A stretch of DNA of 59,934 nucleotides from Acetobacteraceae bacterium (lineage in GTDB: Bacteria > Pseudomonadota > Alphaproteobacteria > Acetobacterales > Acetobacteraceae): the NCBI GenBank assembly GCA_947474705.1, contig CANJJS010000025.1, positions 1-59,934 of the forward strand, written 5' to 3'. Within the stretch, counting starts at the first letter, position 1; each line of letters starts with the position of its first letter. The position numbers and the translations under genes were made by a program. Shown here one piece after another: positions 7,548-29,135 of the stretch. The notes below the pieces were generated by a model. It was not told where the DNA came from, searched no databases, and saw only the letters and a program-made list of their open reading frames with translations.

Positions 7548-7826
7548 GGGCGAGTGAGTGCGGGCGGATGGTCCCGGGGCTTCGCCCCGGACCCCACGGG
7601 GGCGCTGCCCCTCGACCCCGCCAAGGCAGGGCCTTGGATGCCGTCTGTTTGGGGAGTTTGAAGAAGGGGGGCCTACTCGGACGTTGCAACATCACCGATG
7701 GCCCCCCTTCTTCAAACTCCCCAATGAAATGGGTCCAGGGCCCCCGCCCTGGTGGGTTCGAAGGGCAAAGCCCTCGCGGGGTTTGGGGCGGAGCCCCAAG
7801 ACCTATCCGCCCGCCCGCACTCGCCC
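7548..7826. repeat. Large composite palindrome, type 1, copy A
   Basis: About 279 bases fold on themselves at every scale. The outer arms GGGCGAGTG (7548-7556) and CACTCGCCC (7818-7826) pair, conserved 'ggggcttcgcccc'-like modules lie inside, and the centre is a perfect 25-bp stem (7649-7673 with 7700-7724). The 26-base loop contains CGGACGTTGCAAC. The same modules and loop core recur at 10.1 and 28.6 kb, but the central stem sequence is different in each. It fills the gap between the amidohydrolase operon and ppk2, ending 31 bases from the ppk2 stop codon. No protein is encoded. Confidence 0.85.
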
Positions 7827-7856
7827 CGAGGCGCACCCGGCCGGGTGTTTGGCGCG

Positions 7857-8927
7857 TCAGGGGCTGGGATCGCGGCCGCGTTTCAGGGCCGGGTGCACGG
7901 TTTTGTCGATGATGTGCATATCGGTCCCGATCACGTGGGAGCTGGCGCCGACGATCAGCGGGTCCGGTCCGGTGACGATGCTTCGGTCTTTGCCGTCGTA
8001 CGGCAATTGCGACAGAAAGTGCTGCAGCGCGTTCAGTCGCGCCCGTTTTTTATCGTCGGATTTGACGATCGTCCAGGGCGCGTCGGCGGTGTCCGTGTAA
8101 AAGAACATCGCCTCCTTCGCTTCGGTATAATCGTCCCATTTGTCCAGCGACGCCCGGTCGATCGGCGACAGCTTCCATTGCTTCAACGGGTCCGTCTCCC
8201 GCTCCGCGAAGCGCTGACGCTGCACCTCCCGGCTGACCGAAAACCAGAATTTCATCATGATGATCCCAGAGCGCGCGAACATCCGCTCCATTTCCGGGCA
8301 TTGCCGCATGAATTCCAGATATTCGTTCGGCGAGCAAAACCCCATCACACGCTCGACGCCCGCCCGATTATACCAGGACCGGTCGAACAGCACGATTTCC
8401 CCGGCGGCCGGCAAATGCGCGATATAGCGCTGGAAATACCACTGCGTCCGTTCCCGCTCCGTCGGTTTCGGCAGCGCCACGACGCGCGCCGTCCGCGGGT
8501 TCATGTGCTCGGTGAACCGCTTGATCGTTCCGCCTTTGCCCGCCGCGTCGCGCCCCTCGAACAGCACGATCAGCCGTTGTCCCGTCTGTTCGACCCAGCG
8601 CTGCGCCTTAAGAAGCTCCCGCTGCAACTCCAGCATATGGGCTTCGTAGGCGGCGTTCCGCATCGAGGTCTTGTACGGATACTCACCCGATTCGAACAAA
8701 CGGCGTATCGCCGCCGGATCGTGCCGCATCGCCGCGAGCGTATGCGCCGCCGAGGCTTCCACGCCGCCCTCGCGCGCCACCGGTTGAGCGGCCACCGGCG
8801 CCGCGGTCAGTGCTTCCGCCATCGCCGGAGCCACTTCGACGCCAGACCCGGCCTCCGCGGAAACGGGGGACGCATCCGTTTCGGCGGGTGCCGCGCCGTT
8901 CGTTCGACTGTGTGTTTGTCGTGCCAT
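7857..8927 (-). CDS. ppk2: Polyphosphate kinase 2 family protein
   Basis: This 356-residue enzyme makes or uses inorganic polyphosphate to phosphorylate nucleotides. A disordered Ala/Pro/Glu-rich N-terminus of about 70 residues precedes one PPK2 domain. Landmarks are Walker A GRDAAGKGG (125-133), the lid region PKPTERERTQWYFQRY (about 153-168) and Walker B FDRSWYNRAG (181-190). The domain is complete. GGGAGG lies about 11 bases before the ATG. A terminator hairpin separates it from the HicA-like gene upstream, so it probably has its own promoter in the short gap. Whether it prefers ADP, GDP or AMP is not clear from these motifs. Confidence 0.93.
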   Translation of the reverse strand: MARQTHSRTNGAAPAETDASPVSAEAGSGVEVAPAMAEALTAAPVAAQPVAREGGVEASAAHTLAAMRHDPAAIRRLFESGEYPYKTSMRNAAYEAHMLELQRELLKAQRWVEQTGQRLIVLFEGRDAAGKGGTIKRFTEHMNPRTARVVALPKPTERERTQWYFQRYIAHLPAAGEIVLFDRSWYNRAGVERVMGFCSPNEYLEFMRQCPEMERMFARSGIIMMKFWFSVSREVQRQRFAERETDPLKQWKLSPIDRASLDKWDDYTEAKEAMFFYTDTADAPWTIVKSDDKKRARLNALQHFLSQLPYDGKDRSIVTGPDPLIVGASSHVIGTDMHIIDKTVHPALKRGRDPSP

Positions 8928-8962
8928 CTTAAACCATGCCTCCCGTTACGCCGAACGATACG

Positions 8963-8990
8963 AAAACGCCGGCTCGCGCGGAGCCGGCGT
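8963..8990 (-). terminator. Rho-independent terminator after the HicA-like gene
   Basis: On the minus strand a 10-bp stem GAGCCGGCGT/ACGCCGGCTC-type (8981-8990 with 8966-8975) with a five-base loop is followed by TTTT (8963-8966). It lies about 20 bases after the stop codon of the HicA-like gene and before ppk2. Confidence 0.75.
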
Positions 8991-9009
8991 CGCGGAAAAG
9001 CCCAGAGTT

Positions 9010-9294
9010 TCAGGTCGCGGCGTGCGTGTCCAACGGATAATCTCGCACCGGGTCGATCCCGGCGGTCTCCAGAAACTTCCGGATCGCGGCCACCTCGTCT
9101 TTGGAGAACGCATGTCGAGAATCGTGAAATCCATGCGTGTGCTTGTTCAACTTCACCACGATCTGGCCGTGCCCGCCATGGGACACCTCGCCACCCAGTT
9201 CCTCGATCACCGAATAAACCGCCTTCGGATCGATGTTCGCGCTGACGGGATGGGCGAACAACGCATGCAGCGTAACGCGATGCTTGTGATTCAT
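9010..9294 (-). CDS. HicA/YcfA-like small protein, no HicB partner
   Basis: This 94-residue protein has the layout MNHKHRVTLHALFAHPVS, then ELGGEVSHGGHGQIVVKL, then a C-terminal helix DEVAAIRKFLETAGI. It resembles stand-alone HicA-like proteins (a small double-stranded-RNA-binding fold) found outside toxin-antitoxin loci. The conserved His of toxic HicA may correspond to the His in GGHGQ. No HicB antitoxin gene lies beside it. An alternative GTG start six bases upstream (9300) lies closer to GAGGAG; I prefer ATG 9294 by family alignment. An FNR-type box is centred about 64 bases upstream, with CAATAT placed as a -10, and a terminator follows. Function is unknown. Confidence 0.7.
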   Translation of the reverse strand: MNHKHRVTLHALFAHPVSANIDPKAVYSVIEELGGEVSHGGHGQIVVKLNKHTHGFHDSRHAFSKDEVAAIRKFLETAGIDPVRDYPLDTHAAT

Positions 9295-9351
9295 TTGCAC
9301 CAGTACTCCTCGGTTAACGAGGATATTGAAACCCTTCCCGCGCGGCGGGCG

Positions 9352-9365
9352 TTGACACAGATCAA
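9352..9365. promoter_or_regulatory. FNR/FixK-type box upstream of the HicA-like gene
   Basis: TTGACACAGATCAA matches the FNR consensus TTGAT-N4-ATCAA with one change. Its centre is 64.5 bases from ATG 9294. A -10-like CAATAT lies 23 bases past the box on the minus strand, the spacing expected when the box is centred at -41.5. Confidence 0.7.
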
Positions 9366-9372
9366 TCGCCGC

Positions 9373-10083
9373 TCACGCCGCCTCCACCCGCACCAGCCGC
9401 CGCCGCGTCGCGGGCCGCAACGGCAGACCCGCGTAAACATCCTTCACCGCCTCCGTGATCGTCACGCCCGCGAGACCCGGCATCAGCCGCCGTCCCACAC
9501 GCTCGAACAACGGTGCCGATCGCGAAATCAGCCGCGACCGCCACGGCGGCATCCATAACGCGGGATCGTGCCGCTCAACCCGGAACAAGGCGCCCGACAG
9601 CAGCCGCCCCAACTGACCCGCCGTATAAGGCTGGCCATGCCCAAACGGCGTGCTGTCCCAATAAGCCCACATCCCCGTGCGGTTCGGCGTCACGATCAGC
9701 AACCGCCCATCGTCCTTTAACACCCGCCACAACTCCCGGATCAGCCGCCGCGCGTTCTCCGCCATCTCCAACCCATGCACCACCAAGATGCGGTCGAACA
9801 CCAGATCGGGAAACGGCAACGCATCCTCTTCCGCCACACAGGACAAATTCGGCGCATCCGGCGGCCACCGAATCGCCCCCATCTGCGCGGGAGTCACCGC
9901 GATCCGCCGATACGCCCGACCCTCCCACGCCCGCAAATAGGGCACCGCATACCCAAGCCCCAAAACCTCGCACCCCGAAACATCGGGCCACACAGCCGAA
10001 ATCCCCGCACGCAACAACCGCGCCGTCACCACCCCCCGCGAGGTCCGATAAAACTCCGCCGCCCCATGCGCATCGGCGGTCAT
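9373..10083 (-). CDS. Class I SAM-dependent methyltransferase
   Basis: This 236-residue protein has a Rossmann methyltransferase core. Motif I is degenerate (VLGLGYAVPYL, about 40-50), followed by a motif II/III region and DRILVVHGLE as the family's helper segment. ELWRVLKDDGRLLIVTPNR is the typical motif after strand 5. The pattern fits the methyltransferase often found next to glyoxalase II in alphaproteobacteria, though that partner is not here. The start ATG 10081-10083 is chosen because the longer frame runs back through the palindromic repeat and reads as its translation. The palindrome's outer arm overlaps the first few bases of this gene, so its promoter must be within or beyond the repeat. 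Confidence 0.85.
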   Translation of the reverse strand: MTADAHGAAEFYRTSRGVVTARLLRAGISAVWPDVSGCEVLGLGYAVPYLRAWEGRAYRRIAVTPAQMGAIRWPPDAPNLSCVAEEDALPFPDLVFDRILVVHGLEMAENARRLIRELWRVLKDDGRLLIVTPNRTGMWAYWDSTPFGHGQPYTAGQLGRLLSGALFRVERHDPALWMPPWRSRLISRSAPLFERVGRRLMPGLAGVTITEAVKDVYAGLPLRPATRRRLVRVEAA

Positions 10084-10392
10084 GGGGCTCGGGGCGATCG
10101 GACGGAGGGCGGCGAGCGCCGGGGCTTTGCCCCGGACCCCACGAGGGGCTTTGCCCCTTCGAACCCCACCAAGGGCTCGCCCTTGGAACCCCGGGGTTGG
10201 GAGGTGGGTAAGGGAGGGCCTTCCACGGACGTTGCAACCGCCTCGCATGGCCCTCCCTTACCCACCTCCCAAAATCGATCGCGGTCCAGGGGACGTTCCC
10301 CTGGCGGGGTCGAGGGGCGGAGCCCTCGCGGGGTTTGGGGCGGAGCCCCAACGCTTACGTCCGCCCGTCCAATAACCCCGAGCCCCATGACC
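10078..10392. repeat. Large composite palindrome, type 1, copy B
   Basis: The element is bounded by a perfect 17-bp inverted repeat, GGTCATGGGGCTCGGGG at 10078-10094 and its complement at 10376-10392. Inside are modules shared with the 7.5 and 28.6 kb copies. The centre is a perfect 24-bp stem (10197-10220 with 10249-10272) and a 28-base loop holding CGGACGTTGCAAC. The right boundary lies three bases from the stop codon of the binding-protein gene, and the left boundary overlaps the start codon of the methyltransferase gene. No real coding content. Confidence 0.85.
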
Positions 10393-10395
10393 AGC

Positions 10396-11976
10396 TCAAT
10401 GCGCCGGGTGGACGAAGTGTATGGTGGTGGCTTCGCCGCGGTTGGCGTCGACGGTGAAGCCTTTGCGGGCGGCCCAGTAAAGGCGTTGCCAGTAGAGGGG
10501 CAGGATGCCCGCGTCTTCCATCGCGATCCTCGTGGCCGTCGCCAGCAGCGCGCCGCGCTTCGCCGGATCGAATTCGGCCGAGGCCGGCCGCAGCGCGTCG
10601 TCGAACGCGGTGTTCGAGTATCGGGCCCGGTTCAACGACCCCGTGCCTTTCGCCGCGTCGTAGGTCGCCAGCACGCCGGTCAGCCCGTTCAGCGAGGAGC
10701 TCGCGACGCTGCCGTAACTGAAAATGAACATGCTGTATTTTCGTTGCGTCGCGGCGGGCGCGTAGACGTTATAGGGCACGACCTCGACCCCGTTCACCTT
10801 GATCCCGCCGCGGGTGAACATTTGGCCCAGAGCCTGCGCCAACTGGGAATCGTTGGGGAAGCGGTTGTTAGAGCTGTGGAACGTCAGCCCGAATCCGTCG
10901 GGATACCCCGCCTCCGCCAGCAGCTTTTTCGCCCCCGCGGGATCGAACGCCATCGGCTTCAGCGCGGGGTCGTGACCGCCCATGCCCTCCGGCACGATCT
11001 GCCCCGTCGGTTCGCCCGCGCCGGAGAGCACCCGCTCCACGATGGCCTGCCGGTTGATCGTCTTCGACAAGGCCAAACGCACCCGCCGGTCCCGCAATGG
11101 ATTGACCGTCATCGGCTTGCCGTCCTTGTCCGTGATGAATGGACTCTCGTCCCGGCCCTGGTCCATCGCGATATAAATCACCCGCGTGGAGACCATGTCG
11201 AACAGCTTCACATCCTGACGGTTTTGAAAAACCCCAATATCGGCGGGCGGAATCTGCTCGATCACATCCACCGATCCCGACAGCAGCGCCGCCCCGCGCG
11301 AGGCCGGATTGGACAGGAATTTCGCCGTGACCGTCTCGAACGCGGGCTTTTCGCCCCAATAGGCCGGGTTGGCGGTCCAGACCACGTTGTCGCCCGGCGC
11401 GCTGGATTTGAACCGGTACGCCCCCGTTCCGATCATGGCGCGGCCCGCGTTGAAATCCTCGTTCGCGACGGTGGCGCCCAGCTTCGCGGGGATAACGAAA
11501 ATGCGGCCGATCATGTCCATCAACAGCGGCGTCGGATTGACCGTATGAATCCGCAACGTCGTCGGCCCGACCACCTCCGCCTGCTTCACCGGCCGGACAA
11601 AACTCGACAGCGGGCCCGGACTGTTCGGAATATCGCGCGCCCGGTTCAGCGAATACGCCACATCCGCCGCCGTCATCGGCGAGCCGTCGTGGAATTTCAC
11701 CCCCGCCCGCAACTCGATATCCCAGGTCAGCGGATCGATCGATTTCCACGACACGGCGAGCGACGGTTTCAGAGTCAACTTCGCGTCGTAATGAATCATG
11801 CTCTCGAACATGTTCTCGGCCGTCGCGACATCGCTGCCAAGATCGGAATAATGCGGATCGAGCGACCCGTGCTCCGTCGCCCGCCCCATCCGAAGATCGC
11901 CCGCCTGGGCGGTGCCAGTGCCAGTGACAACGGCGGTTGCGGACAGCAAAGTCAGTAACGCGAACAGGCGGCGCAT
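10396..11976 (-). CDS. Peptide/nickel-type ABC transporter substrate-binding protein (SBP_bac_5)
   Basis: This 526-residue periplasmic binding protein has a signal peptide of about 23-24 residues (MRRLFALLTLL to TAQAG). Family-5 landmarks follow: GSLDPHYSDLGSDVATAENM, FESMIHYD, LAVSWKSIDPLTWDIELR, GVKFHDGSPMTAADVAYSLN and LRDRRVRLALSKTINRQAIV. It would deliver peptides or other small solutes to an Opp/Dpp-type permease, yet no permease lies next to it, so it is an orphan or works with a distant complex. The start at 11976 is chosen from the signal peptide, and GGGAGA is about 11 bases upstream. Its stop abuts the 10.1 kb palindrome. Confidence 0.9.
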   Translation of the reverse strand: MRRLFALLTLLSATAVVTGTGTAQAGDLRMGRATEHGSLDPHYSDLGSDVATAENMFESMIHYDAKLTLKPSLAVSWKSIDPLTWDIELRAGVKFHDGSPMTAADVAYSLNRARDIPNSPGPLSSFVRPVKQAEVVGPTTLRIHTVNPTPLLMDMIGRIFVIPAKLGATVANEDFNAGRAMIGTGAYRFKSSAPGDNVVWTANPAYWGEKPAFETVTAKFLSNPASRGAALLSGSVDVIEQIPPADIGVFQNRQDVKLFDMVSTRVIYIAMDQGRDESPFITDKDGKPMTVNPLRDRRVRLALSKTINRQAIVERVLSGAGEPTGQIVPEGMGGHDPALKPMAFDPAGAKKLLAEAGYPDGFGLTFHSSNNRFPNDSQLAQALGQMFTRGGIKVNGVEVVPYNVYAPAATQRKYSMFIFSYGSVASSSLNGLTGVLATYDAAKGTGSLNRARYSNTAFDDALRPASAEFDPAKRGALLATATRIAMEDAGILPLYWQRLYWAARKGFTVDANRGEATTIHFVHPAH

Positions 11977-12103
11977 GATGGATCGTCTCTCCCGTGGGAA
12001 TTGGCGTGGAAACCGGACGAAGGTAACGTGCCCGGCGGCGGCGGGACAGAGGGGCCAAATGGGCAACCCAGACGCGAAACCCAGAGTGGCCGGAGCACAC
12101 ACC

Positions 12104-12667
12104 ATGCGCGAGGACCCGCGTTACGCGTTCCGTCACAGCATATTGACCAACGAAACCCATTGGTCGATCGCCGATGGCGCGCTGATCGAGCGCGACGGCG
12201 CGGCCGAAACACGCATTCCCCTGACCGATGTGACATCCCTGCGCCTGGATTTCGACCCGTCTCGCGTCGAGACCAATCGCTACCGCTGCGTCCTGCGATG
12301 CGCCAACGGCCGCGAAATCCCGTTGCTGAGCGTCTCCTACACCGGTTTCGCCGACTTCGAGGATCGCGGCGCGGCCTACAGCGCCTTCGTCGCCGCCCTG
12401 ATCGCCGCCCTCGCGCGCCATAACCCCGCGTGCCGCTTTCTCGCCGGCAAGGCCAAAGCCACCTACATCCCCGAGATCCTGCTGTTGGCGGTCAGCGCGG
12501 TCATGCTGTTGTTCATCCTGCTGCTGATGGGCATCCCACTCATCGGCATCGCCCTCCTGAAACTGGGCCTGGTCGCCGCGCTGTTCCCCGCCGCCCGCGA
12601 CTATATCGCCCGCAACCGTCCCAGGACCTTCGCCCCGGACGCGCCGCCCGCCGATTTGTTACCCTGA
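12104..12667 (+). CDS. Conserved hypothetical membrane protein
   Basis: This is a 187-residue protein with a soluble N-terminal part (about 1-120) of beta-rich character, including RIPLTDVTSLRLDFDPSRV and NRYRCVLRCANGREIPLLS. A long hydrophobic segment follows (about 130-170) that could span the membrane once or twice, then a basic tail. The layout resembles a bacterial PH-like domain next to a membrane hairpin, but this is only a resemblance. The start is uncertain: ATG 12104 has CGGAGC nine bases upstream, while ATG 12060 follows AGAGGGG. It is divergent from the binding-protein gene and 51 bases upstream of pgpA, perhaps co-transcribed. Confidence 0.7.
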   Translation: MREDPRYAFRHSILTNETHWSIADGALIERDGAAETRIPLTDVTSLRLDFDPSRVETNRYRCVLRCANGREIPLLSVSYTGFADFEDRGAAYSAFVAALIAALARHNPACRFLAGKAKATYIPEILLLAVSAVMLLFILLLMGIPLIGIALLKLGLVAALFPAARDYIARNRPRTFAPDAPPADLLP

Positions 12668-12718
12668 CACCGGCGCCCATCCGTGCCATTCTTCCGGCCT
12701 TCCAGGGAGACCAACATC

Positions 12719-13198
12719 ATGCATCCCGCGATATGGATCGCGAGCGGCGGCGGCATCGGCCGGGTCCGTTTCATTCCCGGCACCACCGCCACGGCGATCG
12801 GCGCGCTGATCGGCGCCTTCGCGCTGTGGATCGACCTTCGTGCCATGATCTTTCTCGCCATCGCCGCCTGCCTGATCGGCGCGATCGCGATCCGCCTGAC
12901 CGGCGAGCAGAAAAGCCCGGAATGGATCGTCGTCGACGAACTCGCGGGCATCTGGGTCGCGATGATCGGGCTGACGAAATTCTCGATCACCGGCACCATC
13001 GGCGCCTTCATCGTCTTCCGCCTCCTCAGCCTGACCAGGCCGGGCCCGATCGGATGGGCCGACAAGCGAGAGGGCGCGATCGCGACGATGGCCGACGATA
13101 TCGCCGCAGGGCTGATCGCCGCCGCGCTGCTCTACCTTATGCGCTTCTTGCCGCCGGTGCTGCTGTGGGGCTGGCTGCCGCTCGACCTGTTCCCCTGA
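12719..13198 (+). CDS. pgpA: Phosphatidylglycerophosphatase A
   Basis: This 159-residue inner-membrane protein matches PgpA, which removes the phosphate of phosphatidylglycerol phosphate in phospholipid synthesis. The family blocks are present: GGIGRVRFIPGTTAT near the N-terminus, SPEWIVVDELAGIW (the acidic block, about 61-74), FRLLSLTRPGPIGWAD and MADDIAAG near the C-terminus. The first block departs from the common PAPGTWG form. Three to four hydrophobic segments are seen. ATG 12719 follows CCAGGGAG at good spacing; the longer frame adds 12 unsupported residues. It converges on the hbd gene across a terminator. Confidence 0.88.
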   Translation: MHPAIWIASGGGIGRVRFIPGTTATAIGALIGAFALWIDLRAMIFLAIAACLIGAIAIRLTGEQKSPEWIVVDELAGIWVAMIGLTKFSITGTIGAFIVFRLLSLTRPGPIGWADKREGAIATMADDIAAGLIAAALLYLMRFLPPVLLWGWLPLDLFP

Positions 13199-13203
13199 AC
13201 ACG

Positions 13204-13234
13204 AAAAAGGCCGGAGGGAGCTCCCATCCGGCCT
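13204..13234 (-). terminator. Rho-independent terminator of the etf/hbd operon
   Basis: On the minus strand the stem AGGCCGGA/TCCGGCCT (13227-13234 with 13208-13215) with a self-complementary GGGAGCTCCC loop is followed by TTTTT (13204-13208). It is about 20 bases past the stop of the 3-hydroxyacyl-CoA dehydrogenase gene. Confidence 0.85.
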
Positions 13235-13254
13235 GTTCGAAATCCGTGCTTGCG

Positions 13255-14181
13255 TTACCGCGTCGGACGCGGCGGCGTCTGCGAATAATCGTAAAATCCG
13301 CGCCCGGTCTTGCGTCCCAGCCACCCGGCCTCGACATATTTCACCAGCAACGGACACGGCCGGTATTTGCTGTCCGACAACCCGTCGTACAACACCTGCA
13401 TGATCGACAAACACGTATCCAGCCCGATGAAATCCGCCAGTTCCAGCGGCCCCATTGGGTGGTTCGCGCCCAGACGCATGGAGGTATCGATCGCCGAGAC
13501 CGATCCCACGCCTTCGTAAAGCGCGTAAACCGCCTCGTTGATCATCGGCACCAGGATACGGTTGACGATGAAGGCCGGAAAATCCTCGGACACCGCCGTG
13601 ATTTTTCCCAGCTTCCGCGCCAGCGCCTGAACCGACAGGAACGTCGGTTCGTCGGTCGCGATGCCTCGGATCACTTCCACCAGCTTCATGACCGGAACCG
13701 GGTTCATGAAGTGCATGCCGATGAATTTTTCCGGACGATCGGTGGAGGCGCCCAACCGCGTGATCGAGATCGACGAAGTGTTCGACGCCACCATGCAGGA
13801 GGCTTTCAGGTGCGGCATCATCGTCTGATAGACGATGCGCTTCACCTCTTCCTTTTCCGTCGCCGCTTCCAGCACCAAATCCGCCTCGCCCAGCGCGGCG
13901 TATTCGGTGGAGGTGTTAATGCGCGCCAAAGCCGCGTCCCGGTCGTCGGAGGAGATGACCGTCCGGTTCACCTGCCGGTCCATGTTGCGGGCCATCGTGG
14001 CCATGGCCTTGGTCAAGGCCTCGGCCTTGATATCCACGATGGTCACCGTCAACCCCGCGAGGGCGCAGACATGGGCGATTCCGTTGCCCATCTGGCCCGC
14101 GCCCACGATACCGATCCGGCGGATGTCCACCGGTTCGGCCATCGCGATGTGATCGGGACTCGCTTTGACGTCGACATTCAT
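13255..14181 (-). CDS. 3-hydroxybutyryl-CoA / 3-hydroxyacyl-CoA dehydrogenase
   Basis: This 308-residue cytoplasmic enzyme oxidises 3-hydroxyacyl-CoA with NAD(P). The Rossmann signature IGIVGAGQMGNGIA begins near residue 23. The family block HFMNPVPVMKLVEVI carries the catalytic His of the His-Glu pair, and PAFIVNRILVPMINEAVYAL and GANHPMGPLELADFIGLD match the C-terminal dimerisation domain. The length is usual for the short, single-function form (HbdA/PaaH). Its ATG directly abuts the etfA stop codon, giving the etfB-etfA-hbd operon order common in alphaproteobacteria. This couples beta-oxidation-type steps to ETF. A terminator follows. Confidence 0.93.
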   Translation of the reverse strand: MNVDVKASPDHIAMAEPVDIRRIGIVGAGQMGNGIAHVCALAGLTVTIVDIKAEALTKAMATMARNMDRQVNRTVISSDDRDAALARINTSTEYAALGEADLVLEAATEKEEVKRIVYQTMMPHLKASCMVASNTSSISITRLGASTDRPEKFIGMHFMNPVPVMKLVEVIRGIATDEPTFLSVQALARKLGKITAVSEDFPAFIVNRILVPMINEAVYALYEGVGSVSAIDTSMRLGANHPMGPLELADFIGLDTCLSIMQVLYDGLSDSKYRPCPLLVKYVEAGWLGRKTGRGFYDYSQTPPRPTR

Positions 14182-15117
14182 TCAGGAGCGCTCCAATTCC
14201 GCGGCCAGTTCCGGCAACGCGGCGAAAAGATCGGCGACCAGGCCGTAATCGGCGACCTGGAAGATCGGCGCTTCCTCATCCTTATTGATCGCCACGATGA
14301 CCTTGCTGTCTTTCATGCCGGCGAGGTGCTGGATGGCCCCCGAAATTCCGACCGCGATATACAGCTCTGGCGCGACGATCTTGCCCGTTTGCCCGACCTG
14401 GAATTCGTTGGGAACGAATCCAGCATCGACCGCGGCACGCGAGGCGCCGACGGCGGCACCCAGTTTGTCGGCGATCGGTTCGAGGAGTTTGAAGTTATCG
14501 CCGTTCTGCATCCCGCGTCCACCGGAAATCACCACGCGAGCGGCGGTCAGTTCCGGACGTTCGCTTTTCGACAGCTCGGCGGAGATGAATTTCGACAGGC
14601 CCGGCAGGTCTCCGATGGCGACGGCCTCGATCGACGCGGAACCACCCTCGGCCGCGGCCGGGTCGAAGCTGGCGGCGCGAACCGTGATCACCTTCTTCGT
14701 GTCGGAGGATTTCACCGTCGCCATGCCGTTGCCGGCATAGATCGGGCGGACAAACGTGTCGGCGTCCACCACGGCGGCGATGTCGCTGATCGGCTGCACA
14801 TCCAGCAGCGCGGCGGCGCGCGGCAGGATGTTTTTACCGACCGCGGTCGTCGCGGCCAGGATATGCGAATACCCCGGCGCCAGCGCGACCAGCAGCGCGG
14901 CCGTGGTTTCCGCCATGCCGTGATCCAGCGCGGGTGATTCGGCGGTGAGCACCTTGGTCACGCCCGCGATCTTCGCGGCGGCGGCGGCGGCGGCACCCAG
15001 ATCGACACCGGCGACCAGCCCATGGATCTCGCCAAGCGCCGAGGCGGCGGCGACGGCGGACCGCGACGGCTGCTTGATGCCGGCGGCGTCGAATTCGAGC
15101 AGAACGAGAACGGCCAT
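14182..15117 (-). CDS. etfA: Electron transfer flavoprotein, alpha subunit
   Basis: This 311-residue protein is the FAD-binding subunit of ETF, which takes electrons from acyl-CoA dehydrogenases and passes them to ETF-ubiquinone oxidoreductase. The C-terminal FAD domain shows VVISGGRGM, FVPNEFQVGQTGKIVAPELY and the EtfA signature LYIAVGISGAIQHLAGM. The N-terminal half is the pseudo-symmetric Rossmann-like domain. It begins two bases after the etfB stop codon and is followed directly by hbd. All expected regions are intact. Confidence 0.97.
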   Translation of the reverse strand: MAVLVLLEFDAAGIKQPSRSAVAAASALGEIHGLVAGVDLGAAAAAAAKIAGVTKVLTAESPALDHGMAETTAALLVALAPGYSHILAATTAVGKNILPRAAALLDVQPISDIAAVVDADTFVRPIYAGNGMATVKSSDTKKVITVRAASFDPAAAEGGSASIEAVAIGDLPGLSKFISAELSKSERPELTAARVVISGGRGMQNGDNFKLLEPIADKLGAAVGASRAAVDAGFVPNEFQVGQTGKIVAPELYIAVGISGAIQHLAGMKDSKVIVAINKDEEAPIFQVADYGLVADLFAALPELAAELERS

Positions 15118-15119
15118 GA

Positions 15120-15869
15120 TCAGATCACCTTCGCTTCGGTGCGGAGTTTGGCGACAAGCTCGGCGACCGAGCCGACTTTCTGGCCCGCCTTGCGGCTCGC
15201 GGGCTCATCGACGCGCAGCGTCACCAGGCGCGGCGTGGGATCGACGCCGTAATCGGCGGGTTTCTTGTTGTCGATCGGCTTTTTCCGCGCCTTCATGATG
15301 TTCGGCAGCGAGGCATAGCGCGGCTCGTTCAACCGCAGATCGGTGGTCACGATCGAGGGCAGGTTCAGCGCCACGGTTTCGAGACCGCCGTCCACTTCCC
15401 GCGTGACGGTCAGGGTCTGGCCCTCGACGGTCAATTTCGACGCGAAGGTGCCCTGCGACCAGCCCAACAAAGCGGCCAACATCGGGCCCGTGGCTGACAT
15501 GTCGTCGTCGATCGCCTGCTTGCCAAGGATGATCAGACCGGGCTGCTCCGCGTCGGCAATGGCTTTAAGAAGCTTGGCCACGGCGAGCGGCTGGAGATCG
15601 GCGTCGGTCTCCACCAGAATGCCGCGGTCGGCGCCCATGGCCAAAGCGGTACGGATGGTCTCCGCGCATTGCGCCACGCCCATGGAAATCGCGACGATCT
15701 CCGTCGCCACGCCCTTTTCCTTCAGGCGCACGGCCTCCTCGACGGCGATTTCGTCGAAGGGGTTCATCGACATTTTGACACCGGCGGTCTCGATGCCGGT
15801 TTTGTCGGTCTTCACGCGGACCTTGACGTTGTAGTCAACCACCCGCTTGACGGGGACCAGAACTTTCAT
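15120..15869 (-). CDS. etfB: Electron transfer flavoprotein, beta subunit
   Basis: This 249-residue protein is the AMP-binding ETF partner. It has [19 protein letters not shown] at the N-terminus, [29 protein letters not shown] and the signature region [19 protein letters not shown], then the recognition loop [17 protein letters not shown] that docks dehydrogenases. The start at 15869 is the conserved MKVLVPVKR; the longer frame adds 24 residues without homology. It is the first gene of the etf operon. The 267-base gap upstream holds its promoter and that of the divergent toxin-antitoxin pair, with no other recognisable signal. Confidence 0.97.
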
Positions 15870-16136
15870 GGGGCTATCCTGCCGCTTCCTGGAACGAGAA
15901 AATGAGACGTACGGACATGTCTGCTCCGGGCCGATGGCCACGCGGCCCCGTCCCTTCGCAGTTGCGATATAGGCGGCGGACCATATGCGGGGGGTGCCTG
16001 GCTGTCAAATTATCGTCATGAGGGGCTGGTGTGCGTTTTTTTGGGTGAGGGTTTGGCCGTCGCGCGGCGGGCGGGCGGCTTTTCCTTCCAGGCCGACCGG
16101 TTTCGTGCTTCAATCCCGGGCGAGAGGTCACCCATT

Positions 16137-16597: not shown

Positions 16598-16664
16598 TTT
16601 GCAAAGATCGTCATTCGGAAATTCATGGTCATCGCATCCATGACTCCACTGCGGCGTAATTCCG

Positions 16665-18008: not shown

Positions 18009-18035
18009 CCTCGTCCCACGTAACCCGCCATCGCC

Positions 18036-19297: not shown

Positions 19298-19300
19298 GGG

Positions 19301-19618: not shown

Positions 19619-19621
19619 CGC

Positions 19622-21183: not shown

Positions 21184-21962
21184 CGCGCGCCGCGCTCCGC
21201 GTGCACCAAATGCATGACCTGTTCGGAAATATTCCGCATCTCCGGATCGGCGGTGAAACTGTCCCAGTCGCGGCCGCCGCTGCCATGCCGAGGCACCTCC
21301 AGCACCGCCTTGATCGTGCCGGGACGCTTCGTCATCACCAGCACCCGATCGGCGAGAAACACCGCCTCGTCCACGCTGTGCGTGATGAAAAACACCGTCT
21401 TTCCCGTGGTGGCGCACAAACGCCCGAGTTCCTCCTGCAACGTCAACCGCGTCATCGCGTCCACCGCGGCGAAAGGTTCGTCCATCAAAATGATCTCCGG
21501 ATCGGCCGCCCATGTCCGGGCGACCGCGACCCGCTGCCGCATCCCGCCGGATAATTCGTGCGGATACCGGTCCTCGAACCCGGCGAGGCCCATCAGATCC
21601 ACCAGACGCGCCACCGTGCTCTCGCGCACCGCTTTCGACGCGCCCGCGATCTCCAGCCCATGCGCGATATTCCGCCGCACCGTGCGCCACGGCAAAATCG
21701 CGAGTTCCTGAAACACGACTCCACGCTCCCGTCCCGGCCCCTTCACCGGCTTGCCATCGCATAATATCGTGCCTTCAGACGGCGCGATGAACCCCGCGAT
21801 CGCCTTCAGCAACGTCGTTTTGCCGCACCCGCTGGGTCCCACCAGCGTCACGAACTCGCCCTCGCGGATCGCCAGATCGATCGTGCCCGTGGCCTGCACC
21901 GGCCCATCTTCCGTCGGGAAGAAATGCCGGAACCCGGAAACCGAGATTTTGTCCGATGCCAT
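21180..21962 (-). CDS. SsuB/TauB-type ABC transporter ATP-binding protein
   Basis: This 260-residue nucleotide-binding subunit has Walker A GPSGCGKT at 42-49, a Q-loop in VVFQELAILPWRTV, the signature LSGGMRQRVAVART, Walker B IILMDEPFAAVD and the switch His in FFITHSVDEAV. The PWRTV and DAMTR elements are typical of nitrate/sulfonate/taurine importers. The start is MASDKIS at 21962, five bases after the stop of the binding-protein gene; the longer frame is translation of that gene in another register. It energises the two permeases downstream. Confidence 0.94.
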   Translation of the reverse strand: MASDKISVSGFRHFFPTEDGPVQATGTIDLAIREGEFVTLVGPSGCGKTTLLKAIAGFIAPSEGTILCDGKPVKGPGRERGVVFQELAILPWRTVRRNIAHGLEIAGASKAVRESTVARLVDLMGLAGFEDRYPHELSGGMRQRVAVARTWAADPEIILMDEPFAAVDAMTRLTLQEELGRLCATTGKTVFFITHSVDEAVFLADRVLVMTKRPGTIKAVLEVPRHGSGGRDWDSFTADPEMRNISEQVMHLVHAERGAR

Positions 21963-21967
21963 GCCGG

Positions 21968-23039
21968 TCAGTCCAACTTGCCCTTGCAATCGTCGATCTT
22001 CGCTGGCAACGGCGGCAGCCCCGCGAACAAATCCGCGTGCTTCGCCAGGATTTTCTCGTAAACACTCAGATCGTAATAATCCGAGGCCACGAAGGGCCGG
22101 TCCATCTTGATCTGCCCGGCCCGCGCCATGCCGTTGCCACTTCGAATACTCCCCTCGATCGCGCACACCGACACCCGAGGGTCCCAGATCAACTGCCGCA
22201 ACCCCTCGGCGGCGTCCGCCAAATTCAATCCATCCAAATACCGCGCGTCGATCTCCGCCGTTTCCTTCGGGTTTTCCCGAATGAACTTCGCCGCCATCGC
22301 GATCCCCACGGCGAATTTTTCAACGGTCGCCGCATTGGCTTTCAGATAATCCTCGCGCACGACAACGCCGACATTGTCCGACATCAGCCCTTCCTCGCCG
22401 CGGCTGACCACCGCCACATTGGCGCCCAACTCCCGAATCAACTGCGATCCATACGGCTCCCATGCCACCGTCGCGTCCACCAGCCCTTGTTTCAAAGCGA
22501 CCGGCATGTCTTCCACCAGCATGCTCACAAGCTGAGTTTTCGAAATATCGACCTTATATTTGCGGAACCATTGCCGCATGTAATACTCGTTGGTGCCGGC
22601 CGTGAACCCCAGCTTCTTGCCCTCCAGCGACGCCCGGTTCGCGGGATCGATGCCCTTGTCGCGGCGCCCGATGATGGAATACGCGGTCGCCTTTCCCATG
22701 TAATCGGAGGCTGTAATAAGGCAGCACCGCGATCAGCTTATCCCCGCCCGCGCGCGCCACCGACAAAGTTCCGCTGATCGCGACATGACCGAACTGAGTC
22801 TCGCCCGCCTGCAAGGCCTGCACGACGTTACGCCCGCCACTCGTCAGCTTGATCTGAACATTCAACCCTTGTTCGGCCCAATATCCGTTTTCCAGCGCGA
22901 CGAAATGCGGCGACGACAATATATTCTTCACCACATAGACCGTCACATCCGTCATCTTTTGCGCCCGAGCCTCGCCCGCCGCGACCAAACCCGCCAGCAT
23001 CGCGCCCATCGCCCAAACAACCCGCCGATATCTCGCCAC
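21968..23039 (-). pseudogene. SsuA/NMT1-type substrate-binding protein, frameshifted
   Basis: The first gene of the importer operon is split. The N-terminal part starts at GTG 23039 (GGAGG seven bases upstream) with a signal peptide ending in GEARAQ, then VYVVKNILSSPHFVALENGY and GGRNVVQALQAGETQFGHVA. It runs normally to KLIAVLPYYS near 22715. The remainder, from YMGKATAYSIIGRRDKG near 22700 to LPAKIDDCKGKLD, is in a frame one base away. One extra base in the CCTCC stretch, or loss of two bases, restores a full protein of about 355 residues. Either the importer has lost its binding protein or this is a sequencing error. The reading frames are otherwise clean, so any loss is recent. Confidence 0.8.
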
Positions 23040-23223
23040 TGGACGTCCTCCCTGTTCCCCGCCGGTTCGCCCGGCCGTCCTGTCCAATGGTATCGCACGC
23101 CGGCACCGGGGGGTGGCAAGACCACCCATGGCCCGACGATTTGCCATGCGCCAAAAATCCGGCATGCTTCCTGGCAATGCACGGGCACCGCCAAACAGCC
23201 CGCGCCAAAAAGGGGAAACATCC

Positions 23224-24609
23224 ATGAGCGGCGCGGCAGCTTACGCCCAAAACGGACTACCCGCCTTGACCGTCGGAGAACGGCTGGACCGGCTCCCGAT
23301 CGGGCCCGTCCATTATCGCCTGATCGCCCTGATCGCGGGTGGATTGTTCGTCGATGTCTACGACCAAACCCTCGCGGGCGCGGTGCTGGCCACGATGGTC
23401 AAAAGCGGCGAATCCAACCTGGCCCTCAACGGCTGGTTCCTCTCCTCCACCTTCCTTGGGCTGATGGTCGGCGCCTGGGTTGCCGGCATCATGTCCGACC
23501 GTCTGGGCCGCAGAGTTTCGTTTCAAATCAACCTTCTTATCTTCGGCGTCTTCTCCCTCGCCGCCGTCGCCGCGCCCTCCATGCAATGGCTGATCGGCCT
23601 CCGCTTCCTCATGAGCATCGGCCTTGGCGCCGAAGTCGTTGTCGCCGCCGCCACGCTGATGGAATTCGTTCCGGCGGCCAAACGCGGCCGCATGGTCGCG
23701 GCGCTGTCTCTGTGCAGCCCGGTCTCGACACTGTTCGCGAATCTCGTGGGTTCCTGGCTGATCCCGATCGCCGGCTGGCAGGTCATGTTTCTCATTGCCG
23801 GTGTCGGCGCCATGATCGTCTGGGTCATGCGCAAGAACATGCCGGAATCTCCGCGCTGGCTGGAATCGCAGGGGCGTTACGACGAAGCTGAGGCGATTAC
23901 CCGCATGGTCGAGGGCGCCTCCTACCAGCCCGCCGCCAAAATCGGCGCGGCCATCGCTTCCGTTCCGCCGTCAATCCCGACCTCGGTCCTGTTCTCTTCC
24001 GGCGTCCTGAAACTCTCGATTTTGGCGATCTGCCTGAACATCGCGGTGCAGAGCACGGTCTGGATCCTGAACGGCTGGCTGCCGAGTTTCCTGGTTAAAC
24101 AGGGTCTCACGGTGTCTTCGTCGCTGGCTTTCGCGGCGTTGTTGTCGATCGGCTCCATCGGCGGCACTTTGCTGGCGATCGCCACGGTCGATCGGATCGG
24201 CCGCAAACCGGGCATTATCGGCGCCAGCCTGCTGGGCATCGCCGCGTCGGGATGGTTTCCCTATGCCAACGGTCCGGCACAGGCGGTGCTGATCGGCATG
24301 GTCATGAGCGCCTGCATCTATTACCTGTTGTCGGTGATTTTCTATGTCTATGTCGGCGAGATCTTCCCCACCGAGTTCCGCCAGCGCGGGGTTGGGCTGG
24401 GCATTGCCTCCGGCCGGATTATTTTGGTTTTGTCGCCCTATCTGATCGTGCCCATGTTCGGATGGGGTGGCACGCAGGCGGTGTTTGGACTGGTGGTTGG
24501 GATGCTGGTTTTTACGATTGTCGTTATCGCCGCGATTGGCATCGAAACGCGGGGGCGGTCCCTGGAGGCCATTTCCCGTGGGGTTGGGGGCACCAACCCC
24601 ACGGGCTGA
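23224..24609 (+). CDS. MFS transporter, sugar/organic-acid porter type
   Basis: This 461-residue inner-membrane protein has about 12 hydrophobic spans. It shows the loop motif SDRLGRRVSFQ after span 2, the mid-protein MPESPRWLESQGRYDEA characteristic of sugar-porter and metabolite:H+ symporter branches, and DRIGRKPGIIG in the second half. The start ATG 23224 follows AAGGGG; the longer frame crosses the divergent promoter region. Its last codons form a perfect 13-bp inverted repeat (24575-24587 with 24593-24605), three bases from the convergent gene. It is divergent from the SsuABC-like operon. The substrate is probably a small organic acid or sugar. Confidence 0.9.
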   Translation: MSGAAAYAQNGLPALTVGERLDRLPIGPVHYRLIALIAGGLFVDVYDQTLAGAVLATMVKSGESNLALNGWFLSSTFLGLMVGAWVAGIMSDRLGRRVSFQINLLIFGVFSLAAVAAPSMQWLIGLRFLMSIGLGAEVVVAAATLMEFVPAAKRGRMVAALSLCSPVSTLFANLVGSWLIPIAGWQVMFLIAGVGAMIVWVMRKNMPESPRWLESQGRYDEAEAITRMVEGASYQPAAKIGAAIASVPPSIPTSVLFSSGVLKLSILAICLNIAVQSTVWILNGWLPSFLVKQGLTVSSSLAFAALLSIGSIGGTLLAIATVDRIGRKPGIIGASLLGIAASGWFPYANGPAQAVLIGMVMSACIYYLLSVIFYVYVGEIFPTEFRQRGVGLGIASGRIILVLSPYLIVPMFGWGGTQAVFGLVVGMLVFTIVVIAAIGIETRGRSLEAISRGVGGTNPTG

Positions 24610-24611
24610 AC

Positions 24612-24983
24612 TCAGGCCACCGCGAAGGCCGGCATCCGCGCCCAGGCGGGGTGGCGGATGGCGGTTTCGGGGTTGTGCTCGGGGGAAAGGGCGTGCGCGA
24701 CGGCCATCCAGGGCATGCCCTTGGCCCGGAACACTTCGGCCAAGGCGGCCAGGGTTTCCGTGTCGCGCCAGGCCCATAACCGTTCCACCAGGGGTTCGAA
24801 CGTGCGGGTCCAGTCCGGTCCGCCGGACCTGGCCGGCGAGAAGGTTTCGATCAGCGCGGTGAGTTCCGCCACGCTGGCGCCGCGGATGGCGCGGCGCATC
24901 TGGTCCTCGGCCAGCGACAGGGTCGTGGCGGCGGCGTTCCGGACCCGCCAGATGTCGTCCAATGCCGAATGGGCGTCCTGCAT
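24612..24983 (-). CDS. Hypothetical protein, second gene of an FNR-box operon
   Basis: This 123-residue, mostly helical soluble protein includes LDDIWRVRNAAATTLSLAED, ALIETFSPARSGGPDW and EVFRAKGMPWMAVAHALSPE. I do not recognise a family. It starts 10 bases after the stop codon of the 534-residue gene, with GAGGAGG placed upstream of ATG 24983, so the two are one operon. Length and composition look like a partner subunit or chaperone, but nothing proves this. It converges on the MFS gene with a two-base gap. Confidence 0.75.
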   Translation of the reverse strand: MQDAHSALDDIWRVRNAAATTLSLAEDQMRRAIRGASVAELTALIETFSPARSGGPDWTRTFEPLVERLWAWRDTETLAALAEVFRAKGMPWMAVAHALSPEHNPETAIRHPAWARMPAFAVA

Positions 24984-26598: not shown

Positions 26599-26649
26599 GA
26601 TCCGCCTCCTCCATCGGCGCGACTGGACGCTCATGGCGCGCGGGCGTCC

Positions 26650-26663
26650 TTGATTCAGATCAA
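26650..26663. promoter_or_regulatory. Perfect FNR-type box upstream of the unknown two-gene operon
   Basis: TTGATTCAGATCAA matches TTGAT-N4-ATCAA at every fixed position. The centre is 58.5 bases from the ATG at 26598, which places the start site about 17 bases before the codon if the box is at -41.5. It is about 170 bases from lepA and therefore unlikely to serve that gene. Confidence 0.75.
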
Positions 26664-26832
26664 GGGGCCGGGCGCGGGTCCCGGGCGGGGCTTTTCGACC
26701 ATTGGCGGCCTGTTCTGGACGGCGGGGTTCAACGGATGGATGACACCGCGACGCGCAACGTCTATCAGGGGGCTGAACCGGAGGGTCACCGTCTGACCCC
26801 TGCCGTCAAGCTCAGGTCCCTGTTTCCCCGCC

Positions 26833-28638
26833 ATGACAGACACGCCGCTCGATCACATCCGAAATTTCTCCATCATCGCCCATATCGACCACGGGAAATC
26901 CACCCTGGCCGACCGGCTGATCCAGTTCACCGGCGCGTTGAGCGAACGGGAAATGACCTCCCAGGTCCTGGACAGCATGGACCTGGAGAAAGAGCGCGGT
27001 ATCACCATCAAGGCGCAGACCGTCCGTCTCTCTTATAAGGCGAAGAACGGGGAGACGTACGAGCTTAACCTGATGGACACGCCCGGCCACGTCGATTTCG
27101 CGTACGAGGTCAGCCGCAGCCTGGCGGCGTGCGAGGGGTCGCTGTTGGTCGTCGATGCCAGCCAGGGGGTGGAGGCGCAGACGCTCGCCAACGTGTACCA
27201 GGCGATCGAGGCGAATCACGAGATCGTGCCGATCCTGAACAAGATCGATCTTCCCGCCGCCGAGCCGGAGCGGGTGAAGCAGCAGATCGAGGATGTGATC
27301 GGGCTCGATACCTCGGATTGCGTGGAGATCAGCGCCAAGACGGGCCTGAATATCGAGGGCGTGCTGGAGGCGCTGGTGCATCGGCTGCCGCCGCCGAAAG
27401 GCGACGCGAACGCGCCGTTGAAGGCGTTGCTGGTGGATAGTTGGTACGATCAGTATCTCGGCGTCGTGATTCTGGTGCGGATCAAGGACGGCCGCATGAA
27501 GCGCGGCATGAAGATCCGGATGATGGCGAAGGGCTCCACCCATGCGATCGAGCAGGTGGGCGTGTTCTCGCCGCGGATGATCCCCACCGACGATCTGGGA
27601 CCAGGGGAGATGGGGTATATCACCGCCGCGATCAAAACCGTGGCGGATTGCAATATCGGCGACACGATCACGGACGACCGGGTGCCGGCGGCGGAAGCTC
27701 TGCCGGGGTTCAAGCCGTCGATCCCCGTGGTGTGGTGCGGGCTGTATCCCGTCGATGCGGACGATTTCGAGAAATTGCGGGAATCGCTGGGGAAGCTGCG
27801 GCTGAACGACGCGAGTTTTCACTACGAGCCGGAGACCTCGGCGGCGCTGGGGTTTGGGTTCCGGTGCGGGTTCCTCGGGTTGTTGCATCTGGAGATCATT
27901 CAGGAGCGGTTGAGCCGGGAATTCGATCTGGATCTGATCGCGACGGCGCCCTCGGTTGTCTATCATATCGTGCGGACCAATGGGCAGACGATGGAGTTGC
28001 ACAATCCGGTCGATATGCCGGATCCGTCGTTGATCGATATCATCGAAGAGCCCTGGATCAAGGCTACGATCATGGTGCCCGACGAGTATCTGGGCTCGAT
28101 CCTGGCGTTGTGCACGGAGCGGCGCGGGGTGCAGATCGATCTGACCTATGTCGGCAATCGCGCGATGGCGGTGTATCGCATTCCGTTGAACGAGGTGGTG
28201 TTCGATTTCTACGACCGGTTGAAGTCGGTCAGCCGCGGTTACGCCAGCTTCGATTACCAGATGGACGGGTATACCGAAGGCGAGCTGGTGCGGATCTCCA
28301 TTCTCGTGAACAACGACCCGGTGGACGCGCTGAGCTTCATCGCGCATCGGGCGGTGGCGGAAACGCGAGGGCGAGCGATCTGCGCGCGGTTGAAGGATCT
28401 GATCCCGCGGCAATTGTTCAAGATCGCGATCCAGGCGGCGATCGGCGGGCGGGTGATCGCGCGCGAAACGATTGGGGCGTTGTCGAAGGACGTGACCGCG
28501 AAGTGTTATGGCGGCGATATCAGCCGCAAGCGCAAGCTGCTGGACAAGCAGAAAGAGGGCAAGAAGCGGATGCGGCAATACGGAAAGGTCGAGATTCCGC
28601 AGTCGGCGTTCCTGGCGGCGTTGAAGATGGACGCCTGA
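26833..28638 (+). CDS. lepA: Elongation factor 4 (LepA)
   Basis: This 601-residue translational GTPase acts on elongating or initiating ribosomes. It has G1 AHIDHGKST (16-24), G2 [12 protein letters not shown]3 [13 protein letters not shown]4 [11 protein letters not shown] and the EF-G-like domains, then the LepA-specific C-terminal domain with [18 protein letters not shown] (ribosome contact). The length is usual. The ATG follows a GC-rich leader without a strong ribosome binding site. Its stop is seven bases from the outer arm of the 28.6 kb palindrome. Confidence 0.98.
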
Positions 28639-28645
28639 GATTTGG

Positions 28646-29135
28646 GGTGGGCGCCGGGGCTCTGCCCCGGACCCCGCGAGGGGCTTTGCCCCCTCGACTC
28701 CCACCCTACGGTGGCCGTACATTCACGGAATGAAAATTCGAAGTCAGGAACAACATCTCCTCGTCATCCCCCGACTCGATCGGGGGACCGGGAGCGGCAC
28801 AATCCCGCCTTTCTGGCACTCCCGGTGGCCCGAACAAGTCGGGCTATGACGAGGAGAGTGCGTGCCAGACGGCGGATTTTCATTCCGCGGATGTACGACC
28901 ACCGTAGCGACCCCCACCAGGGGAACGTCCCCTGGACCGCGATCGATTTTGGCCGGATATGAGAAGGGGCCTACCGGGACGTTTCCACGTCCGTGCAGGC
29001 CCCTTCTCATATCCGGCCAAACCCCGGGTTTCCAAGGGCGAGCCCCAAAGGCCCATTGGGGCGGGATCGAAGGGCGGAGCCCTCGTTGGCGCGATCCGCT
29101 TCGCGGCTCTCGGGGGCAAAGCCCCAGCGTTCACC
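28646..29135. repeat. Large composite palindrome, type 1, copy D, with an inserted repeat
   Basis: This element fills the 492-base gap between lepA and the ABC ATPase gene. Outer modules (GGTGGGCGCCGGGGCT at 28646-28661 and its imperfect complement ending at 29135) pair. The centre is a perfect 24-bp stem (28949-28972 with 28997-29020) and a 24-base loop. On the minus strand the loop reads CGGACGTGGAAAC, close to CGGACGTTGCAAC of the two other copies, so this copy is inverted. The left arm is broken by a 202-base insertion (28706-28907). There is no coding content. Confidence 0.85.
28706..28907. mobile_element. Nested palindromic repeat, type 2, copy 2, MITE-like insertion
   Basis: The arms 28706-28739 and 28874-28907 are a 34-base inverted repeat with few mismatches, starting CTACGGTGG and ending CCACCGTAG. 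Inside, TCTCCTCGTCAT (28756-28767) pairs with ATGACGAGGAGA (28846-28857) around the same core as at 4.2 kb. The insertion splits the left arm of the type-1 palindrome. CGACTCCCACC (28695-28705) and CGACCCCCACC (28908-28918) flank it as an 11-base near-identical direct repeat, like a target-site duplication. It has no open reading frame of note, so movement would need an enzyme supplied elsewhere. Confidence 0.7.

What the first reader, a model, noticed from the sequence alone, without database searches (positions are those of the whole stretch)
7548..29135. Palindromes with a conserved loop core but different self-complementary stems
Three intergenic elements (7548-7826, 10078-10392, 28646-29135) share flanking modules and a central loop containing CGGACGTTGCAAC (twice) or CGGACGTGGAAAC (once, inverted). 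The 24-25 bp stems around that loop have unrelated sequences in the three copies, yet each is perfectly self-complementary. Simple divergence from a common ancestor would leave mismatches. The pattern implies active arm homogenisation, for example by hairpin template switching, stem exchange at copying, or selection for a folded RNA or DNA with a recognised loop. The loop could be a protein-binding or processing site. This is the strongest candidate here for an undescribed element.
Basis: seen in the sequence. Interest (0 to 1): 0.82.

Follow-up and report, generated by a model that had tools for sequence, protein, structure and literature searches.

The report
Self-matching, flipping DNA palindromes
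A bacterium carries about a hundred copies of a non-coding DNA palindrome whose two halves keep matching each other as their sequence changes, and whose middle is turned round at some sites between two related species, which suggests that DNA copying, more than selection, keeps these hairpins perfect.

Summary
The three palindromes are real: perfect stems of 25, 24 and 25 bp; ten simulated windows hold none of 15 bp or more. They belong to a multicopy intergenic family: at least 99 places in this genome, matches in 22 of 32 same-genus relatives, and copies in Acidisphaera sp. S103, Acetobacteraceae. Each copy is a nested palindrome: imperfect outer arms, small hairpins, then a central stem of mostly 20-36 bp.

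Stems form families, so 'unrelated' is too strong. But base pairs change as units: in 57 related copies 105 of 855 pair-cells changed on both arms, 16 differ between arms. Inner G and C runs have equal length in 84 of 89 copies. At six orthologous sites in two relatives the flanks are collinear, yet in four the loop or the interior is inverted; one site is unchanged and one unclear. At one inverted site the outer arms are identical over 57 nt.

Best explanation: arm-to-arm copying (template switching or similar conversion), which equalises arms and flips what lies between. That process is known; my paper searches showed no such repeat family. No function was found. The orthologue evidence rests on two draft assemblies.

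The parts
7548..7826 (.).
   Evidence: arms 7570-7686 and 7687-7803, 74% complementary; outer arms read
7621..7638 (.). Copy 1, W-type flank hairpin (CCAAGG...CCTTGGA)
   Evidence: sequence; 18-nt class, 64 copies
7649..7673 (.). Copy 1, left arm of central stem, 25 nt
7674..7699 (.). Copy 1, loop with CGGACGTTGCAAC at 7678-7690
7700..7724 (.). Copy 1, right arm of central stem, 25 nt
7733..7752 (.). Copy 1, S-type flank hairpin (GTCCAGGG...CCCTGG)
   Evidence: sequence
10078..10392 (.). Copy 2, whole element; outer arms 10078-10094 and 10376-10392 pair perfectly over 17 nt by eye
   Evidence: arms 10078-10147 and 10323-10392, 77% complementary
10169..10187 (.). Copy 2, W-type flank hairpin
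   Evidence: sequence
10197..10220 (.). Copy 2, left arm of central stem, 24 nt
10221..10248 (.). Copy 2, loop with CGGACGTTGCAAC at 10226-10238
10249..10272 (.). Copy 2, right arm of central stem, 24 nt
10284..10304 (.). Copy 2, S-type flank hairpin
   Evidence: sequence
28646..29135 (.). Copy 3, whole element, interrupted by a foreign repeat at 28706-28907
28917..28937 (.). Copy 3, S-type flank hairpin (on the left side here)
   Evidence: sequence
28948..28972 (.). Copy 3, left arm of central stem, 25 nt
28973..28996 (.). Copy 3, loop; CGGACGTGGAAAC on the minus strand at 28981-28993
28997..29021 (.). Copy 3, right arm of central stem, 25 nt
29030..29046 (.). Copy 3, W-type flank hairpin (on the right side here)
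   Evidence: sequence

Best explanation
A multicopy, non-coding, intergenic nested palindrome of about 280-400 nt in a genus of Acetobacteraceae. When its DNA folds back on itself, one arm is now and then copied from the other (short-range template switching between inverted repeats, or an equivalent local conversion). This makes the arms identical again after a mutation, so that a change in one arm becomes a paired change, and it can turn round what lies between the arms: the loop inside the central stem, or the interior inside the outer arms. Copies also exchange stem-loop modules. Shown: the multicopy family, the coupling of the arms, equal length changes, both loop orientations, inversion at orthologous sites in two assemblies, one site with equalised outer arms. 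Inferred: that replication template switching is the agent, that selection on the fold is not needed, and how the family spread.
For: Own arms 97.3% identical against 63.9% between copies. 105 of 855 pair-cells changed on both arms, 16 differ between arms, in 57 copies with one flank type; 126 and 62 of 855 in 57 copies of G032, 52 and 10 of 180 in 12 copies of G016. In the small alignment A3 101 cells changed on both sides against 29.2 in shuffles, 2 unpaired and 1 G-U of 408 outer-stem cells (rows were picked with GGCC on both sides). G and C run lengths agree in 84 of 89 copies: 38 are 5/5, 28 are 6/6, none 5/6. Of 33 mismatches in copies with three or fewer, 13 are G-T or A-C, so wobble-type intermediates do not stand out. 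Loop both ways relative to the flanks. Six orthologous sites in G016 and G032 with flank identity 0.886-0.957: loop inverted in L064/L311 and L275/L276, side modules swapped in L290/L313, both in L296/L322, none in L294/L242, unclear in L378/L360. L313 outer arms identical over 57 nt, L290 not. L294/L242 differ by one coupled base-pair change in the stem with both stems perfect over 22 pairs. The same signature, arm homogenisation with spacer inversion, is described for template switching in yeast (PMC8604942) and in RNA genes (PMC8794818); passages seen.
Against: The yardstick of spacer divergence is uneven: W spacer 13.3% and S spacer 10.9% in the own genome, W spacer 12.0% but S spacer 0.9% in G032, W hairpin 1.1%, so 'pairs change at the rate of one site' is rough, and shared descent inflates all counts. 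13 of 98 left arms match another copy better than their own partner. W and S side hairpins are not equalised within a copy. In three S103 copies with one flank type the loop-flank orientation is the same, so flipping is not shown in the isolate. L378/L360 as a whole match better uninverted (0.838 against 0.763). Outer arms: only 5 of 40 exceed the 99th percentile of mixed pairs. The own genome, G016 and G032 are drafts in many contigs; the last two are metagenome assemblies. Ectopic exchange between copies could cause part of the inversions.
Confidence: 0.66

Rival explanations
1. Selection for a folded RNA or DNA: mismatches are harmful and are repaired by ordinary compensating mutations because the hairpin has a function.
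For: Strong covariation; stable folds; inner GGCC and outer TTGG are widely kept.
Against: About a third of the copies carry mismatches (31 of 98). No 5/6 run-length intermediates. Wobble-type mismatches do not stand out. No preferred gene context: 13 convergent, 46 tandem, 22 divergent of 81 scored copies. Loop both ways relative to flanks. No Rfam match. Transcription was not tested.
Confidence: 0.13
2. Perfect arms arise only when a new copy is made: the element spreads through a hairpin intermediate in which one arm is the template for the other; old copies then decay.
For: Multicopy family with shared modules; some stems shared by many copies (13 of 67); mismatches mostly single (20 of 31 imperfect copies).
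Against: Coupled stem change and inversion between copies resident at the same orthologous site. No transposase found with the family: Y1_Tnp absent in 11 of 15 element-bearing same-genus genomes searched, other transposase families not searched.
Confidence: 0.11
3. Inversion by a site-specific recombinase that acts on the conserved inner stem end, with coupled stem change as a separate matter.
For: GGGGGCC or similar borders many loops in inverted orientation.
Against: Two nested levels flip, bordered by different sequences; a recombinase would not equalise arms. No search for an invertase gene was made.
Confidence: 0.05
4. Assembly artefact: palindromes and repeats joined wrongly in draft assemblies.
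For: Several G032 copies lie within about 260 bases of a contig end; L146 is a 50-bp palindrome without a loop at a contig end.
Against: The window copies lie thousands of bases inside a contig; hairpins of about 75 nt are shorter than usual reads (general knowledge); four S103 elements in 394 kb have perfect, different stems (three of the four were already known matches).
Confidence: 0.05

Closest known systems
Template-switch mutation at short inverted repeats (yeast genes PMC8604942; RNA genes PMC8794818; E. coli quasipalindromes PMC7202029, listing only)
   Same: Homogenised arms, inverted spacers or loops, paired changes.
   Different: There: scattered single sites, spacers of 2-5 substitutions in the yeast passages. 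Here: one dispersed repeat family with about a hundred copies, 24-28-nt loops in the window copies and two nested levels.
REP, BIME and REPIN elements (PMC3733652, PMC3116915, passages)
   Same: Intergenic, multicopy, palindromic, patchy between species; compensating changes are reported for REPINs.
   Different: Stems there 5-13 or 8-9 bp, here mostly 20-36 bp; no GTAG or CGTC tag was recognised by eye; no link to Y1_Tnp genes.
Hairpin-loop flip-flop in chloroplast genomes (listing only)
   Same: Small loops between perfect arms occur both ways.
   Different: Not a dispersed family (recalled); here a bacterium and two nested levels.
Rhizobial RIME and ABC mosaic elements (recalled)
   Same: Alphaproteobacterial intergenic mosaics with palindromes.
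   Different: Not compared by sequence here.
Intrastrand triplex (PIT, BoxC) motif (PMC4666352, abstract and passages)
   Same: Purine-rich hairpin repeats linked to instability.
   Different: No third strand recognised by eye after the stem.

Membership tests
Inverted repeats evolving by template switching | Arms more alike within a copy than between copies | tested here: met
   97.3% against 63.9% in 98 copies
Inverted repeats evolving by template switching | Inversion of the segment between the arms | tested here: met
   4 of 6 orthologous pairs, 1 unclear, 1 unchanged; both loop orientations
Inverted repeats evolving by template switching | Event caught during replication | not testable with these tools
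   needs an experiment
REP/REPIN with RAYT transposase | Y1_Tnp gene in element-bearing genomes | tested here: not met
   4 of 21 same-genus genomes searched have one, among them 2 without element matches; G016, G013 and G004, rich in elements, have none; G032 not in that search. The one in the own genome is not beside a family element in the 2,060 bases read
REP/REPIN with RAYT transposase | Short stem (5-13 bp) with GTAG or CGTC tag | tested here: not met
   central stems mostly 20-36 bp; tag judged by eye
MITE | Target-site duplication and terminal repeats of a transposon | tested here: inconclusive
   outer arms are diverged inverted repeats; no empty site was obtained
Intrinsic terminator | Preference for gene 3' ends | tested here: not met
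   13 convergent, 46 tandem, 22 divergent of 81
Known structured RNA | Match to an Rfam family | tested here: not met
   no match at gathering score in the window
RIME/ABC mosaic elements | Sequence similarity | not tested
   no reference sequence at hand
Integron attC sites | attC core sites and an integron integrase | not tested
   considered only as an analogy from memory

The most novel reading that the evidence does not exclude
A new class of self-correcting, self-inverting genomic element: a dispersed family of nested palindromes in which each arm pair is equalised by copying and each enclosed segment can flip, so that each base pair evolves as one site and each copy is a multi-level orientation switch and a rearrangement point, possibly helped by a dedicated enzyme or by the lack of a hairpin nuclease.
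Probability: 0.2. Interest if true: 0.85.

Novelty: new variant of a known kind. Interest (0 to 1): 0.62.

Why it matters
Covarying stems are usually read as proof of a selected structure. Here about a hundred copies in one genome covary without a sign of function and in a way that copying explains, so covariation alone can mislead searches for structural RNA. The family gives natural replicates, with orthologous sites in related species, for testing compensatory mutation against template switching, a long-standing question in hairpin evolution. If the suspected breakpoints hold up, it also ties small palindromes to genome rearrangement.

Tried and rejected
Rfam on the window: nothing at gathering score. 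Copy 2 against the plasmid collection, distant mode: no match. Link to REP/RAYT: not met. Triplex motif: no third strand seen by eye. Terminator placement: no preference. Fixed protein-binding loop: not supported. Lack of SbcD as the reason for high copy number: 0 of 59 genomes reach the family cut-off and 39 of 59 have weaker matches, among 14 control genomes 13 match and 8 reach it; since rich and poor genomes look alike it explains no difference in copy number. Empty site: a 15-kb G032 stretch against G016; the matching contig did not cross its two family elements. Synteny of 20 kb of the window in 40 genomes: matching blocks lie on different contigs, too diverged (65-85% identity) for a site comparison. 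Alignments A1 and A2 were out of register and not used further; A3 was used for model R1. The match in G046 is weak (E 2.1e-4) and looks different.

An earlier count said 23 of 32 relatives and about 95 places; the right figures are 22 of 32 and 99.
Full report
What is there. The window is contig 25 of a draft genome of 5,484,664 bases in 205 contigs. Its three palindromes have perfect central stems of 25, 24 and 25 bp. A de novo scan finds these and one 15-bp palindrome of another kind; ten Markov-1 simulations hold none of 15 bp or more.

Anatomy. From outside inwards: outer arms of about 30 nt that pair imperfectly; small hairpins such as GGGGCTTCGCCCC; on one side a hairpin of type W (CCAAGG...CCTTGGA), on the other of type S (CCAGGG...CCTGGAC); a spacer; the central stem, often beginning TTGG and ending GGGCC; and a loop with a further short stem. 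The 'core' CGGACGTTG(A/C)AAC is that inner stem; in other copies it is GGCGGTT/AACCGCC and in other species different again.

Family. Model R1 of inner stem and loop gave 149 rows at 99 places in the own genome, with 150 candidates scored, so 99 is a lower bound. Of 32 same-genus relatives 22 have at least one match at E 0.001, some a single weak one; rows (both strands counted, at most 93 candidates scored) run from 1 to 88. The two other genera of the family have none; of 24 more distant genomes one has a weak match. Contig lengths tie G032 to CALQHT02, G016 to CAMBXJ01, G001 to CAITUP01 (uncultured Acetobacteraceae) and G025 to NZ_LMUJ01, Acidisphaera sp. S103 (taxonomy). The labels Nitrosovibrio for CALQHT02 and Asaia for CAMBXJ01 do not fit with the shared genus.

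Arm coupling. Of 98 tabulated copies 67 are perfect over 22 pairs; in the pairing-blind sample 19 of 22. The 67 have 36 different sequences, of which 17 pairs differ by exactly one base pair; left arm against own right arm is 97.3% identical, against other copies 63.9%; 13 of 98 left arms match another copy better than their own partner. Among 64 copies with the 18-nt W module, 57 fall into two run-length classes: 105 of 855 cells changed on both arms, 16 differ between arms. If arms changed independently at about 12% per site, my own arithmetic expects about 180 unmatched and 4 matched changes. The coupled share (12.3%) is close to the divergence of one spacer site (13.3% and 10.9%), as expected if either arm can overwrite the other. 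The yardstick is uneven, though: the W hairpin diverges 1.1%, and in G032 the W spacer 12.0% but the S spacer 0.9%. In G032 126 cells are coupled and 62 differ, of 855 in 57 copies, 35 of the 62 in five copies; in G016 52 and 10 of 180 in 12 copies.

Intermediates. Of 33 mismatches in copies with three or fewer, 13 are G-T or A-C. Inner G and C runs have equal length in 84 of 89 copies; 38 are 5/5, 28 are 6/6, none is 5/6.

Flipping within genomes. Of 42 own-genome copies with core loop and clear flanks, 23 point one way and 19 the other; in G032 23 and 14 of the 37 (of 57) that could be read. Two of 98 loops have become self-complementary.

Orthologous sites. I compared 36 G016 loci with 75 G032 loci; 12 G016 entries had a long match at more than 80% identity. 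Six sites hold a whole element in both, with flank identity 0.886-0.957. L064/L311: side modules in place, hairpin better inverted (0.878 against 0.787). L275/L276: likewise (0.877 against 0.781; in the 27-nt loop alone 21 of 28 against 20 of 30). L290/L313: side modules swapped (51 of 58 and 55 of 59 crosswise against 43 of 60 and 43 of 63), loop not. L296/L322: modules swapped (42 of 63 and 54 of 57 against 37 of 66 and 43 of 60) and hairpin inverted (0.781 against 0.658). L294/L242: unchanged apart from one coupled base-pair change in the stem and some loop and module differences. L378/L360: stems quite different, modules slightly better crosswise (49 of 63 and 47 of 61 against 47 of 65 and 42 of 63), whole element better uninverted (0.838 against 0.763): unclear. 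A seventh site, L370/L355, is cut by a contig end. In L313 the outer arms are identical over 57 nt, in L290 they are not: equalised arms with a swapped interior, as switching between the outer arms would give. The L360 stem belongs to a stem family seen at other places of G032, which suggests exchange between copies.

Breakpoints. The two sides of the element in L288 match two different G032 contigs (L242, L337), those of L292 match L331 and L312, and L302 matches the other side of L331. These are rearrangement points or assembly errors.

Isolate. In 394,042 bases of S103 (one contig whole, parts of two chosen because they held known matches) four family elements have perfect stems of 22-26 bp with different sequences; three of the four were already known matches. 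In the three with one flank type the loop-flank orientation is the same, so flipping is not shown in the isolate.

Function. Of 81 copies (of 99) with clear coding signal on both sides 13 lie between convergent genes, 46 tandem, 22 divergent, near 1:2:1. No Rfam match. Nothing points to a shared role; transcription was not tested.

Literature. Template switching at inverted repeats homogenises arms and inverts spacers in yeast (PMC8604942, abstract and passages), and fits paired changes and loop inversions in RNA genes (PMC8794818, passages). PMC7202029 and chloroplast flip-flop papers were seen as listings. REPINs show compensating changes (PMC3116915, passages). The REP survey gives stems of 5-13 and 8-9 bp and says that CGTC repeats are missing in Acetobacteraceae (PMC3733652, passages). 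PMC4666352: abstract and passages. PMC2267715: outline and abstract. Searches in which I saw no such family; the library holds open-licence papers only.

Verdict. A real, lively repeat family. The mutation process is known; the anatomy and the scale look new. Confidence that arm-to-arm copying is the main keeper of the stems: 0.66.

Noticed in passing
window 28706-28907 (and 4199-4305): A different inverted repeat (arms of 97 nt, 78% complementary) sits inside copy 3 between two nearly identical 11-nt stretches (CGACTCCCACC, CGACCCCCACC), which looks like a target duplication; part of it is 86% identical to 4199-4305.
   Followed up: partly
window 45334-45374; L407, L415, L417, L425: Short palindromes with CGTCATGGC...GCCATGACG, here and in S103, resemble CGTC-type REPs, which a 2013 survey says are missing in Acetobacteraceae (PMC3733652, passage).
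   Followed up: no
L288, L292, L302 (G016) against L242, L337, L331, L312 (G032): The two sides of an element match different contigs of the relative: possible rearrangements at elements, or assembly errors.
   Followed up: partly
window 5000-24900: In 40 genomes the blocks that match this stretch lie mostly on separate contigs and end near the elements; gene order around the copies seems little conserved in the genus.
   Followed up: no
L061, 1501-1857: The only Y1_Tnp gene found in the genome, 174 aa, looks like an IS200-type TnpA by eye.
   Followed up: no
G000-G058: No genome of 59 reaches the cut-off of the SbcD model; 39 have weaker matches.
   Followed up: no
window 45395-45635 and 45761-46001; 35296-35561 with 41506-41771: A 241-nt tandem duplication (76% identical) and a 266-nt inverted repeat (74% complementary) about 6 kb apart, perhaps gene duplications.
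   Followed up: no
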